A stretch of 64,000 nt of DNA from positions 8,833,501 to 8,897,500 of the forward strand of contig NC_068558.1 of the NCBI RefSeq assembly GCF_022201045.2, in the 5' to 3' direction. Made by a program: the position numbers and the translations under genes. The DNA is from Citrus sinensis (Eukaryota > Streptophyta > Magnoliopsida > Sapindales > Rutaceae). This document shows, in pieces, positions 34,795 to 41,892 of this stretch. Position 1 is the first letter of the stretch, and the number at the start of each line of letters is the position of its first letter. The notes under the pieces are model-generated. The model was not told the DNA's origin. It worked only from the letters and a program-made list of their open reading frames with translations, and made no database searches.

Positions 34795-34982
34795 TGTAAC
34801 ACCCTAGGCGAATCCCACATCGGCAAAGCACGGGAGAGATGCTGGGTTTATAAGAGGTGATCCACACCTTAATTGGCAAGACGCGTTTTGGGTTGTATGG
34901 GCGCCCCAAGAACAAATCCGTGCGGGCCTTGTTAAGGCCCAAAACGGACAATATCTTGCTAGATCTGGGTTGGGTCATGACA
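34795..34982 (+). repeat. 5' LTR, TRIM type (188 bp)
   Basis: TG at the start, CA at the end, followed by ATTG and a tRNA-iMet primer-binding site. Same length as the copy at 41616-41803, 7 mismatches. Short LTRs of 100-250 bp are the TRIM hallmark. Confidence 0.9.
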
Positions 34983-34986
34983 ATTG

Positions 34987-34998
34987 TGGTATCAGAGC
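34987..34998 (+). promoter_or_regulatory. Primer-binding site (initiator tRNA-Met)
   Basis: TGGTATCAGAGC, complementary to the 3' end of plant initiator tRNA-Met, four bases after the 5' LTR. An identical 12-mer lies at 41531-41542 after the gypsy LTR. Confidence 0.85.
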
Positions 34999-35337
34999 AA
35001 CTAGGTTAGGATTCTGTAGACTTTCTTTTACGGTTTAATTAGATTGTCTAATTAAATCGATTACATTTGTTTTGTAGAAATGAAGAAGGACAATATGGGT
35101 ATGAAAAGTGTTAAGAATAAGAGATGGACGGAAATTGACAGGACTGAACAATTTATCTTAAGAGGAGTTCTTGTCAAAGATCTAAGTTATACTACTTATT
35201 GCTCTTGTTTACAATAGCAAATTTTCTTAGTTATACTACTTATTCAGTACTCTGCGCGCTTGCACGACCTTTAGCCATGAATTATTTACTTTTTTTTAAA
35301 TTATTTATTTATTTATTCTCCGTGTTATAGTCAAGAG

Positions 35338-36105
35338 ATGTCACGTAAGGGAGGTGCTAGGCATGCCTCTAGCTCGAGAGATGTTTTAGGTATCGCTGAC
35401 GACGCTGACCCAACCTTGCACGAGATGGCTAACGAAGGAAATCCTATGATGCGCGCAATGCTTAGATTGATGGAACAACAAAGTAAGTTAATTCAAGATA
35501 TGGCTAGAGGCAGAGTTGGGGCACAAGAGAATGTGCCAGTTGAAAGGCAAGGTGGCGCAAGAGATCATGGGGCTATGGTGAACTTAGAACGATTTAAGAA
35601 ATTGGGACCACCTACCTTTCAGGGGACTGCCGATCCCATGGTTGCAGAGGCATGGCTAAAACCGATGGAGAAGATATTTGTGGCTATGGGTTGTAATGAT
35701 GATCAAAGGGTAATATTAGCCTCTTTTGTCCTTCAGGGTGAGGCAGACTACTGGTGGGATGCCAAATCTCGTCTCATAAGGGTTGGCTTGCAAGATGCAC
35801 CCATTACTTGGGAGTTATTTTTGGAGGCTTTTCATGAAAAGTATTTTCCTGAACGAGTTCGATATCAGATGGAGGCTGATTTCTTGAGGTTGACTCAAGG
35901 AACAGAGTCTGTTGCGGAGTATGAGGAACAATTTACTGCCCTCTCTCGTTTTGCTCATACCTTGGTTGCTAATGAAGGTAGTAAGTGTAGGAAGTTCCTG
36001 GAAGAGTTACGTCCTAACATTAAAGGGCGATTGACCATCCTTAAGATTAACAATTATGCCGATTTGGTTAGGACCTTACCATGTTTCAATAGATTGTTTT
36101 GCTAA
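35338..36105 (+). pseudogene. Gypsy Gag, truncated by internal deletion
   Basis: Start at 35338 (MSRKGGARHASSS). Contains the retrotrans_gag core: FKKLGPPTFQGTADP, WLKPMEKIF, then FVLQGEADYWWD, FHEKYFPERVR and VAEYEEQFTALSRF. After about 244 codons (LKINNYADLVRT, about 36074) the frame runs into pol sequence read in the wrong frame and stops at 36105. The CCHC zinc knuckle and nearly all of the aspartic protease are missing, so the Gag-Pol junction is a deletion with a frame change. The product could not be processed or package RNA normally by itself. Confidence 0.85.
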
Positions 36106-39213: not shown

Positions 39214-39226
39214 AGGAGGGGAGAAT
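39214..39226 (+). promoter_or_regulatory. Polypurine tract of the gypsy element
   Basis: AGGAGGGGAGAAT immediately before the LTR start TGTAACGCC. Primes plus-strand DNA synthesis in LTR elements. Confidence 0.8.
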
Positions 39227-41526
39227 TGTAACGCCACAAATTCCCATACATATTAAATTATGGAAATTGGGTTTTCATTGAGAATTATGGGTGGCCTATA
39301 ACCCTTATTTAGAAAGGGGTACTAATTAAATAGAGGTTATTTATGAGATCATTTTGGAAAATGGTTATTTTTCCTTATTGAATAGGGTTTCTTAAGATCC
39401 CCTATAAATACATACTTTTCCCCCTTCCATAACCCTAAGTTCACAACATTTATTCTTCTTCTCTGCTGCTCTTTACGCTCTTACCCAAATCTTAGGATTC
39501 AAACCTTTGTTTAGGAGAGAATCAAAGCGACGGGTAAGTTGTTCTCCATGTTCTCAACAGATTTCTAATCACTCTATCTAACTAGGGTTTATATTGGCAC
39601 GATTCTAATGGTTGTAGATCATTATGCATGGTTTAGAATATATTTAGACTTTGCTTAGGGTTTTGATTTAGTATGAGTTTAGTTAATCAATCCTTGACGT
39701 ATTAAGCACAGGATAATTCTGGACAGCATGAGGATCTCGAATTTTAAAGCTATATTTTCTGAACGAATTTTCTTATAAAATTTATATTTCTGGAAACTAG
39801 ACATGTAGGGCTTCTTGATTAAATTTTATTTCATTAAATTCAACTTCGTTTTCAATTTTATACGTATTTTGGAAATAGAAACCACTGCACTGGAAATCCA
39901 CAATTTCAGTATTGTGATCAGATTCACAAGACTATTTGTACCACCAAATGAACTCAAAAAATTCTGAAAGTTTATATGTATGTTAATATATGTGTCTAGG
40001 ATTCCCAGTTTTAATTTTATAATTTTCTGGTTAGTATTTTATTTTATAAAAATCACGGAACCCGTTCTGTTTGGTTTAGATTATGTGAAAACAGTTTCGA
40101 GTTTGCTGAGTAGTAAATAGTTTTTAAAATGTTTTTGATATCGGATCCTCTTGTAAATTTTACATGGGGTACGCATGGATGTCCAGAATAGTTCCAGAGA
40201 TATTTTATATCATTCTGAGACTTGGATTAAGAGTTAAAATTCCGAGAATCAGACATGTACGGGTATGAATTAGAAAATCAGATTCTTAGAATAAGTCATT
40301 AATTGTCATATCTTGTATTTGTTTAAGGAGTTGAAGGTGATTGAGGCTCTTAGAAGCTTAGAGGTGGGTTAATTCAAGTTCATTTGTCGAGGTAAGTAAC
40401 TTCATTCCTAGTATACTGGATATGTATAAGTATTTTGATATTATTATTATAAGTAAAAATATTTTTATACTACTTAGAAGATTAATGGATTTTCATAACA
40501 AAATTAGTTTTATGTAAATGTTTTAAAGCCTAAATTCTTTTTAAGAAAGTATTTTATAAATACTTTTAGTATGTAAATTATTTTATGACATGACAACCTT
40601 TTATGATTTTATCTATAAAATAATTTGCAAGCCTAAATTATTGTTATGGACATTTATGAAACTGCTAAGAATGTTTTATGCCTATGTATGGTTTAATTAT
40701 TTATGATTGTATGGGGGCCACCTCTTGAGACTATATGGGGGCCACCTCTTGAAGGCTAAAGCGTCGCAAAGTGCCACGTATAAGTCATTATGTTTTGGCT
40801 CATTGTCCGTAGTTATTTTGATTCTGATTCTGATTGTAATATACGATATATCTGTCTGGACCAGTACTGGGTTTCTGTTCTGAATGTGCACACGATATTC
40901 TGATTCTATTTCTGGCCGGGTCACCGGGACTATAGGTGACACTATGTGACATGAGCTAACCTGTCTGTTTTCTGTATACGTATTACATGATTTGCTTCGT
41001 AAGTAAATATGCTTTTGAATATTCTGAATTATTAAGAATTTATCTTATGTTATTGTGATATATCGTTTTATGAAAATTATGGATTATGATATATGCTTTA
41101 AACAAAAGAAGGCTTGCAATATTTTTGGTATCGATAGGCCTAGTGTGTTAGGAATGGTTTTACTTACCGAGTTGACGGCTCACCCTCGTCATTACTTTTT
41201 TGCAGATTAAGTTTCTTTTAAGAGGTGCACTTAGCTTTGGAGTTAGTGATTTCCAGTTTCCGTTTGCTATTGAATAAGAGGAGGAATAGACTTGTGTTTC
41301 TATTTAGTTACTTCTATTATGAACGTGTAATTTGGAGTTTGAGACTTTTGTTATTATTTTTATATGTCCTCGAGAGAGATTATTTAGTATTTGACGTTTG
41401 GATTCATGGATTTATTTGAATAGGAATTGGAGGAATTTCAGTTTGAAACTTATGAGTAAAGATTAATGATTTGTGAGTAACCTCCTTCTTCACGTGCTCC
41501 GCACGTGTTAGATTTGGGGTGTTACA
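39227..41526 (+). repeat. Gypsy chromovirus LTR (2.3 kb), only copy in the element
   Basis: Begins TGTAACGCC after a purine tract and ends GGTGTTACA before ATTG plus a primer-binding site, so both borders are LTR-like with inverted TGTAAC/GTTACA ends. A TATA-like CTATAAATAC lies near 39402. No matching LTR occurs upstream of gag. Related to the decayed LTR at 25.4-27.7 kb. The minus-strand ORF at 40697-40942 is a chance frame. Confidence 0.85.
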
Positions 41527-41615
41527 ATTGTGGTATCAGAGCGGCTCCGCGTGTCCTCTTGAGCAATGGTGAGGCAAACCTCAGCGAGGACGCTGAGTCC
41601 CCAAGGGGGGGTGTA
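41527..41615 (+). mobile_element. TRIM internal domain (PBS to PPT)
   Basis: ATTG, TGGTATCAGAGC (primer-binding site), a short GC-rich non-coding stretch, then CCCCAAGGGGGGGTGTA as the purine tract directly before the 3' 188-bp LTR. This is a complete TRIM internal region of only 89 bp. It shows which element owns the short LTRs. Confidence 0.8.
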
Positions 41616-41803
41616 TGTAACACCCTAGGCGAATCCCACATCGGCAAAGCACGGGAGAGATGCTGGGTTTATAAGTGGTGATCCACACCTTAATTGGCAA
41701 GACGCGTTTTGGGGTGTATGGGCGCCCCAAGAACAAATCCGTGCGGGCCTTGTTAAGGCCCAAAGCAGACAATATATTGCCAGGTCTGGGTTGGGTCATG
41801 ACA
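41616..41803 (+). repeat. 3' LTR, TRIM type (188 bp)
   Basis: Starts TGTAACACCC, ends GGGTCATGACA. Same length as the copy at 34795-34982 and 7 mismatches from it. Confidence 0.9.
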
Positions 41804-41892
41804 TTGCTGGGTTTATAAGGTGTGGATCACCCCTTATAAACCCAGCATCTCTCCCGTGCTTTGCCGATGTGGGATTCGCCTAGGGTGTTACA
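41804..41892 (-). repeat. Inverted partial LTR (snap-back) at the 3' terminus
   Basis: The reverse complement is the first 74 bases of the 188-bp LTR followed by 15 more bases. Those 15 bases, on the plus strand TTGCTGGGTTTATAA, are again LTR sequence in direct orientation. So a hairpin forms between about 41805-41820 and 41833-41848 (TGCTGGGTTTATAAGG against its complement). It ends in GGGTGTTACA, directly before the CAACT duplication. Confidence 0.85.

What the first reader, a model, noticed from the sequence alone, without database searches (positions are those of the whole stretch)
34795..41892. TRIM-bounded chimera carrying a gypsy chromovirus, joined at a shared LTR/PBS sequence
Seen: 188-bp TRIM LTRs at both ends; between them a gypsy gag-pol, one complete 2.3-kb gypsy LTR with purine tract, and then the TRIM interior (PBS to PPT). 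Both gypsy borders fall in the identical 19-mer ACAATTGTGGTATCAGAGC. CAACT flanks the whole. Known: LTR elements switch templates in reverse transcription and make one-LTR circles; TRIMs are non-autonomous and need helper proteins. Inference: a one-LTR gypsy circle recombined with a TRIM at the PBS, or co-packaged RNAs switched templates there, and the product integrated as one element. This would be a TRIM acquiring the coding region of a probable helper class.
Basis: partly seen in the sequence, partly recalled or inferred. Interest (0 to 1): 0.85.

Follow-up and report, generated by a model that had tools for sequence, protein, structure and literature searches.

The report
Recurrent TRIM–gypsy hybrid retrotransposons, joined at primer site
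A tiny parasitic plant retrotransposon and a large gypsy-type retrotransposon are spliced together at the short site where copying starts, and the same splice recurs at many places in this genome, which points to the large element as the helper that copies the small one.

Summary
The window holds TRIM LTR – PBS – gypsy gag-pol – one 2.3-kb gypsy LTR – PBS – TRIM interior – TRIM LTR, with CAACT on both sides. One correction: the right end is an inverted copy of LTR bases 1-77, so both termini are U3 ends.

It is not a one-off. I found 15 loci in the 300-Mb genome where this TRIM (T) and this gypsy (G) are fused, three of them known only from a pattern match. Pattern counts: 281 T-LTR>T-interior, 24 G-LTR>G-leader, 14 G-LTR>T-interior (12 loci), and T-LTR>G-leader joins at 7 loci. 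Five fused elements lie in one matched 5-bp target duplication. Two of these have a T LTR on one end and a G LTR on the other; another is a 25.5-kb G(TG)x3 concatemer. T and G share no same-strand 12-mer outside the PBS region.

Best reading: T and G RNAs were reverse-transcribed in the same particles, strands were transferred at the shared PBS, and integrase inserted the product. G is T's likely helper. The window's G copy is defective, so gain of function is not shown. Template-switched complexes and TRIM arrays are known; recurrent cross-family, PBS-joined, TSD-bounded hybrids are a new variant.

The parts
34790..34794 (.). left target-site duplication CAACT
   Evidence: sequence; matches 41893-41897
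34795..34982 (+). 5' TRIM (T) LTR, 188 bp, TGTAACACCC...TCATGACA
   Evidence: 113 matches in the genome among 40 scored of 374 candidates, a lower bound
34983..34998 (+). junction 1: gypsy-type spacer ATTG plus PBS TGGTATCAGAGC
34999..35337 (+). gypsy (G) leader, short-leader type
35338..36105 (+). gag ORF (Retrotrans_gag); 3' part and protease segment absent
36106..38443 (+). pol: reverse transcriptase, RNase H, integrase zinc-binding domain; ends at stop 38441-38443
38456..39163 (+). integrase C-terminal part with weak chromodomain match
   Evidence: PF00385 E=0.0014, below Pfam cut-off
39214..39225 (+). gypsy polypurine tract
   Evidence: read from sequence
39227..41526 (+). single complete gypsy LTR, 2300 bp
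41527..41542 (+). junction 2: gypsy spacer plus PBS
41543..41615 (+). TRIM interior including purine tract AAGGGGGGG
41616..41803 (+). 3' TRIM LTR
41804..41815 (.). 12-nt connector: one T, then a re-copied piece of T-LTR from base 46 on
41816..41892 (-). inverted copy of T-LTR bases 1-77, forming the right (U3) terminus
   Evidence: 99% complementary
41893..41897 (.). right target-site duplication CAACT

Best explanation
The window element is one integrated cDNA built from RNAs of two different LTR retrotransposons: a TRIM (T, 188-bp LTRs, 73-nt interior) and a gypsy chromovirus (G, LTRs of about 2.1-2.3 kb).

Shown: the T-G-T order, joins at the LTR/PBS boundary, one 5-bp TSD around the whole, and recurrence of both join types at other loci; four other fusions lie in their own single TSDs.

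Inferred: T RNA is taken into G's virus-like particles, primed by the same tRNA (initiator Met by the PBS letters, recalled) and copied by G's reverse transcriptase. At the second strand transfer, a plus-strand strong-stop DNA (an LTR ending in the PBS) pairs with the PBS end of the other element's minus strand. This puts a T LTR in front of a G interior, or a G LTR in front of a T interior. If the tRNA is not removed in time, the finished plus strand again ends in a PBS copy and can pair once more, chaining units head to tail (T-T, G-G, T-G or G-T). Snap-back copying adds the inverted LTR piece. G integrase then inserts the product. It can do so because the T-LTR U3 tip equals the G-LTR U5 tip read inwards from the end, so U3/U3 or T/G-ended molecules still present usable ends. 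G is therefore the likely helper of T.
For: Junction counts at up to 3 mismatches: 281 T>T, 24 G>G, 14 G>T at 12 loci, T>G at 5 loci (7 of its 20 matches) plus the window and a PBS-less join.

Five chimeras with matched TSD: window CAACT; C8:13336165-13339664 AGTTA; C1:5236206-5243907 TGTTC and C5:19133921-19141822 ATAAC, both T LTR to G LTR; C4:18562163-18587627 ATAAA.

19 of 25 T|G joins on the maps fall at the PBS (hand count; C4 gives 6; two unclear stretches in C8:12637986 left out). T and G share no same-strand 12-mer elsewhere. Upstream of 30 G leaders (30 of the 41 matches, window included): 21 G-LTR, 9 T-LTR, 0 other family (L059 read by hand).

G-LTR>PBS ends that run into gag (L062) or pol (L079) fit the PBS end being the jumping end. 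T U3 tip and G U5 tip are identical for 10 nt.

Palindromic TRIM insertions in perfect TSDs: C2, C1 and C4:24.06-Mb loci. 16 of 17 loci with T-LTRs at both ends have 5/5 TSD (one is a solo LTR, one the C8:13336165 chimera).
Against: No particles, RNA or extrachromosomal DNA were examined; helper status is inferred. The window's left join keeps the G-type spacer, so it was not a textbook plus-strand transfer. 6 of 25 T|G joins are not at the PBS. Two C4 stretches differ at 1 of 3877 nt, which suggests later unequal exchange or one template rather than independent copies. The T units of C3:34184, C4 and C8:12639 share an 8-G purine run (2 of 46 ordinary units have it), and the C8:12639 unit is slightly nearer to C4 (2 differences) than to any ordinary unit listed (3 or more), so those three loci may go back to one join. 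C7:8359963-8368164 matches its TSD only 4/5. Outer ends of nine fused loci were not resolved (C1:10333823, C2, C3:34184, C5:18773, C6, C7:9802519, C8:12633, C8:12639, C8:14951). Interiors of C1, C5 and C4 were seen only in part, and an extra inverted match to the G-LTR start lies inside the C5 element. T's U5 tip shares only 3 nt with either G tip. Partner specificity was tested from the G side, not the T side.
Confidence: 0.8

Rival explanations
1. A one-LTR gypsy circle, or linear gypsy cDNA, recombined as DNA with TRIM cDNA or a resident TRIM at the 15-19-nt PBS identity, and the product was integrated or stayed in place.
For: Gives exactly T-LTR, G, G-LTR, T-interior, T-LTR; one-LTR circles are normal by-products (recalled). 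The window's G-type spacer at junction 1 fits an exchange in flanking identity.
Against: Does not give T-LTR to G-LTR hybrids inside one TSD (C1, C5), PBS ends running into gag or pol (L062, L079), or U3/U3 and U5/U5 palindromes. Little identity is available outside the PBS.
Confidence: 0.12
2. Post-integration recombination between neighbouring or nested T and G insertions.
For: T and G sequences do cluster (for example C8:12.62-12.66 Mb), and the near-identical C4 stretches suggest some later unequal exchange.
Against: Five chimeras have one matched TSD around the whole; 19 of 25 mapped joins are at the PBS; palindromic arrays have perfect TSDs.
Confidence: 0.04
3. Assembly error at the window.
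For: Reads could not be inspected.
Against: The same joins recur at many loci on chromosome-size contigs, with different spacers and G subtypes and with matched TSDs.
Confidence: 0.02
4. The composite is ancestral: the TRIM arose from a larger element with TRIM LTRs by deletion between the two PBS copies, as published for rice OsajRetroS10/OsajLTRA10.
For: Architecture (LTR, PBS, coding, PBS, TRIM interior, LTR) is like that described for OsajLTRA10 (PMC4717578 section 18).
Against: Here the coding part belongs to a stand-alone family with its own long LTRs (24 ordinary G-LTR>G-leader junctions), and an internal G LTR sits before the second PBS. T junctions far outnumber composites (281).
Confidence: 0.02

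Closest known systems
Template-switching complexes (Sabot & Schulman 2007, PMC1950507; main text read)
   Same: Fused multi-LTR element inside one 5-bp TSD, explained by co-packaged RNAs and switching in reverse transcription.
   Different: Their four cases join members of one family and are explained by a switch at R; here two unrelated families are joined at the PBS, many times in one genome, also with unlike end LTRs.
VejuL and BARE-2 chimeras (named in PMC1950507; passages of PMC13317346; primary papers not read)
   Same: A TRIM (Veju) made longer, or an LTR swapped (BARE-2), attributed to abnormal template switching.
   Different: PMC13317346 calls the Veju insert an unknown DNA sequence; here the donor is identified and 19 of 25 mapped joins are at the PBS.
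Tandemly arrayed TRIMs (Gao 2016, PMC4717578, passages; Kalendar 2020, PMC7215508, passages)
   Same: LTR-interior-LTR-interior-LTR arrays; Gao shows examples with one TSD, one of them with inverted TRIMs; Kalendar names template switching as a possible cause.
   Different: Here arrays also mix in a gypsy, and G-G and G-T-G-T concatemers share LTRs in the same way.
OsajRetroS10 / OsajLTRA10 of rice (PMC4717578, section 18 read)
   Same: TRIM-type LTRs and interior around a coding insert edged by two copies of a 25-mer containing TGGTATCAGAGCC.
   Different: Read there as the parent of the TRIM by internal deletion; the window suggests such elements could instead be TRIM chimeras (my inference, not tested in rice).
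Autonomous/non-autonomous LTR pairs (wheat Wilma/Sabrina/WHAM, PMC9744471, passages; einkorn Cereba/Quinta, PMC11302176, passages)
   Same: Partners proposed from a shared PBS and shared LTR tips.
   Different: Those partners are matched by motifs and activity; here a TRIM is tied to its partner by physical fusion.

Membership tests
TRIM | short direct terminal repeats, short non-coding interior with PBS and PPT | tested here: met
   188-bp LTRs, 73-nt interior after a 15-nt spacer+PBS, period 276 in arrays
TRIM | 5-bp target-site duplication | tested here: met
   16 of 17 loci with T-LTRs at both ends, 5/5; the miss has a truncated LTR
TRIM | depends on proteins of an autonomous element | not testable with these tools
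   no coding capacity seen; helper inferred from chimeras
Ty3-gypsy chromovirus | gag, RT, RNase H, then integrase order | tested here: met
   Pfam hits in that order, (protease absent in this copy)
Ty3-gypsy chromovirus | chromodomain at the integrase C-terminus | tested here: inconclusive
   PF00385 E=0.0014, 18.9 bits against cut-off 25.1, at the expected place
Template-switching complex (Sabot & Schulman) | single TSD around the whole complex | tested here: met
   CAACT in the window; four more chimeras
Template-switching complex (Sabot & Schulman) | outer LTRs highly alike, from one cycle | tested here: inconclusive
   window outer T-LTRs differ at 7 of 188; at 3 sites the odd base is unseen in 77 other copies, at 4 it occurs in 3-5 of them. 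C1 and C5 have unlike outer LTRs
Tandemly arrayed TRIM | alternating TRIM LTRs and interiors sharing LTRs | tested here: met
   met at other loci; the window itself has one T interior only
Nested insertion of gypsy into TRIM | two gypsy LTRs and a gypsy TSD inside the TRIM | tested here: not met
   one G LTR; borders at the PBS
Retrozyme | hammerhead ribozyme in the LTR | tested here: not met
   no Rfam match up to E=1 in 34700-42000

The most novel reading that the evidence does not exclude
The PBS works as a universal splice point inside shared particles. T and G units are chained in any order (T-T, G-G, T-G, G-T), and the U3 tip of T, which copies G's U5 tip, lets even palindromic or mixed-end chains integrate. 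G-T-G elements, with matching G LTRs, could then be replicating composites that carry a TRIM in their leader, so parasite and helper would move as one unit; the 8-G run shared by the T units of C3:34184, C4 and C8:12639 would fit such descent. Some published 'autonomous partners' of TRIMs, such as OsajLTRA10, may be the same kind of chimera.
Probability: 0.3. Interest if true: 0.8.

Novelty: new variant of a known kind. Interest (0 to 1): 0.62.

Why it matters
Who copies TRIMs is largely open: Gao 2016 found related larger elements for only 11 of 289 TRIM subfamilies, four of them with all coding domains (PMC4717578 section 18). A fossil record of fused molecules inside one TSD is direct evidence that two elements met before integration, so it can name a helper without sequence similarity. 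It also suggests one rule, PBS transfer, for TRIM arrays and chimeras, and offers another reading of PBS-duplicated 'autonomous' TRIM relatives. All of this can be tested with particle and extrachromosomal-DNA sequencing.

Tried and rejected
Rejected: nested insertion (one G LTR only), post-integration recombination for the TSD-bounded loci, and retrozyme.

Inconclusive: a common chimeric ancestor. Differing spacers, G leader types and joins speak against one ancestor for all; (56 T units, 10 behind a G-LTR, at 8 loci) shows chimeric T units near ordinary ones, but C3:34184, C4 and C8:12639 share an 8-G run. Dating by the two window T-LTRs: 7 of 188 sites differ, and position 61 is unlike the 77 others in both; I cannot tell age from different parents.

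Led nowhere: naming the species. The window's own proteins are listed without source; the best named tetraspanin relatives are about 50-60% identical. Contig sizes look Citrus-like from memory only; not claimed. Searches listed no paper I recognised on a snRNA-type promoter in a TRIM LTR. Searches listed no PBS-joined TRIM–gypsy chimera that I recognised from titles and abstract starts; the library is partial. Jiang 2002 (Dasheng/RIRE2 chimeras) and Du 2010 (LTR swapping) are recalled, not read.

One search listed only 100 of its 162 matches, so a far end of C5:18773 or C8:14951 with one mismatch could have been missed.
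Full report
Observation. The window element runs from 34795 to 41892, inside CAACT repeats at 34790-34794 and 41893-41897. Its parts in order are: T-LTR (188 bp); spacer+PBS; gypsy leader, gag and pol; one 2300-bp gypsy LTR; spacer+PBS; 73-nt TRIM interior; T-LTR; a 12-nt connector; and an inverted copy of T-LTR bases 1-77.

State of the gypsy part. Pfam finds Retrotrans_gag, RVT_1, RNase H and the integrase zinc-binding domain, then the integrase C-terminal part with a weak chromodomain. 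Eight fetched copies (L033-L037, L039-L041) have 685-690 nt between the gag and pol matches. In L034 this stretch carries RVP_2 protease (E=1.6e-32) and a zinc knuckle. The window copy lacks it, as does L051, and has a stop at 38441-38443. It cannot supply a full protein set.

Genome-wide junctions. The genome (300 Mb, 11 contigs) could be searched. Ordinary TRIM junctions (T-LTR>PBS>T-interior): 281. Ordinary gypsy junctions (G-LTR>PBS>G-leader): 24. Hybrid G-LTR>PBS>T-interior: 14 matches, 12 loci when the C4 array counts once. Hybrid T-LTR>PBS>G-leader: 7 of the 20 matches (5 loci), the window, and a join without PBS at C8:12640438. Pattern lengths differ (31-41 nt), so the ratio is rough. 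In the 30 fetched of the 41 G-leader matches, chosen regardless of what precedes them: 21 have a G-LTR, 9 a T-LTR, none another family. The script classed L059 as 'other'; by its letters it is a T-LTR joined without PBS. In the 30 fetched of the 41 matches to the G-LTR end plus PBS: 17 are followed by G leader (the script's 16 plus L073, a leader with a 4-nt loss), 10 by T-interior, 2 by gag or pol of G, 1 by other DNA. Both sets include the window and three units of the C4 array.

Loci. In all, 15 loci carry T–G fusions: C1:5236206, C1:10333823, C2:13426103, C3:8868295 (window), C3:34184, C4:18562163, C5:18773, C5:19141, C6:17026251, C7:8367, C7:9802519, C8:12633, C8:12639-12641, C8:13336165 and C8:14951. 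C2, C6 and C7:9802519 are known only from the 41-nt pattern.

Single target duplications. Beside the window, four fusions have a perfectly matched 5-mer around the whole. C8:13336165-13339664 (T, T, one G-LTR from end to end, a gag piece, inverted T, T) has AGTTA. C1:5236206-5243907 has TGTTC and C5:19133921-19141822 has ATAAC; each starts with a T LTR and ends with a G LTR. C4:18562163-18587627 has ATAAA; the left 19-mer has exactly one match in the genome, at the predicted place, and the right end is. It reads G-LTR followed by three (T unit, G unit) repeats, 25.5 kb. For C1, C5 and C4 the inner parts were seen only partly, and the C5 element holds an extra inverted match to the G-LTR start. 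C7:8359963-8368164 matches 4 of 5. Outer ends of the other nine loci were not resolved. Control: of 17 loci with T-LTRs at both ends (one a solo LTR, one the C8:13336165 chimera), 16 match 5/5; with right flanks shuffled among loci the mean is 0.94 and the maximum 6, self-draws included. The exception has a truncated LTR.

Inverted arrays. C2:6434047-6436305 has U3/U3 ends (CAAGC); C1:14950254-14950835 and C4:24062511-24063268 have U5/U5 ends (CCTAT, ATTAT). The simplest reading is that such molecules formed before integration.

Where the joins fall. On the maps, 19 of 25 T|G joins are at the PBS (hand count; 6 come from the C4 array; two unclear stretches in C8:12637986 left out). T and G share no same-strand 12-mer outside the PBS region. 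G-LTR>PBS ends in L062 and L079 run straight into gag and pol, as expected if the PBS end is the free 3' end that jumps. Five of the seven T>G loci keep the T-type spacer, the window has the G-type, and C8:12640 has lost the PBS, so the joins are not all copies of one event. T units of chimeras are in general as close to ordinary T units as to other chimeras, but C3:34184, C4 and C8:12639 share an 8-G purine run found in 2 of 46 ordinary units, and the C8:12639 unit is one step nearer to C4 than to any ordinary unit listed. These three may go back to one join.

Why G is the likely helper. Criteria used for LTR partners include a shared PBS and shared LTR tips (PMC9744471, passages). Both hold here in part: same 12-nt PBS core, and T's U3 tip equals G's U5 tip for 10 nt, while T's U5 tip shares only 3 nt with either G tip. 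The physical fusions add direct evidence that both nucleic acids met before integration.

Mechanism. Plus-strand strong-stop DNA ends in the PBS copy; pairing with the other element's minus-strand PBS gives both join types, and repeating the step gives concatemers. This is inferred. DNA recombination with a one-LTR circle could make the window alone, but not the T-LTR to G-LTR hybrids or the palindromes. Later unequal exchange may have enlarged the C4 array, in which two stretches differ at 1 of 3877 nt.

Relation to the literature. Single-TSD, three-LTR complexes from template switching are known within families (PMC1950507, main text). TRIM arrays, including an inverted one, are known (PMC4717578, passages), and template switching was named as a possible cause (PMC7215508, passages). 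A lengthened TRIM, Veju, is attributed to abnormal template switching (PMC13317346, passages). Intra-family recombination is frequent in Onsen (PMC5668417, passages). Rice OsajLTRA10 has a PBS-containing 25-mer at both edges of its coding insert (PMC4717578 section 18), a layout like the one here. I conclude a new variant of a known kind: recurrent, cross-family, PBS-joined hybrids that name a TRIM's likely helper.

Noticed in passing
window 34812-34822 and 34848-34853 (T-LTR bases 18-28, 54-59): The TRIM LTR carries ATCCCACATCG, the plant snRNA upstream element consensus RTCCCACATCG, and TTATAA 33.5 bp away centre to centre. PMC9845283 (passages) gives RTCCCACATCG and says the Pol III type lies one helical turn closer than the Pol II type; this spacing looks nearer the Pol II type.
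   Followed up: partly
C2:6434047-6436305, C1:14950254-14950835, C4:24062511-24063268: Palindromic TRIM arrays with U3/U3 or U5/U5 ends inside perfect 5-bp TSDs.
   Followed up: partly
T-LTR bases 130-146 (window 34924-34940): A 7-bp stem hairpin in the TRIM LTR (computed on another copy); inverted copies at C2:6435328 and C8:13338895 end at LTR base 148-149, next to it, fitting snap-back copying.
   Followed up: partly
C5:10078909-10097025: Dense TRIM junctions over about 18 kb, a very long TRIM array.
   Followed up: no
C5:4792830-4808250: Gypsy LTR ends at about 7.5-kb spacing with leaders between, apparently a G-G tandem sharing LTRs, so G alone also forms concatemers.
   Followed up: no
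window 427-4422 (-): Uninterrupted 1331-aa ORF that looks like a Ty1-copia polyprotein (by eye).
   Followed up: no
window 30064-32963, 42998-43489, 46757-47407, 57151-57783, 60645-61145: Tetraspanin-like gene cluster with a further, partial copy at about 43 kb; the hybrid element sits inside this cluster (only the first ORF was searched for homologues).
   Followed up: partly
C8:16087399 (L051): A second gypsy copy matches the window's shortened gag-pol boundary without a gap, so the zinc-knuckle/protease deletion is shared or recurrent.
   Followed up: no
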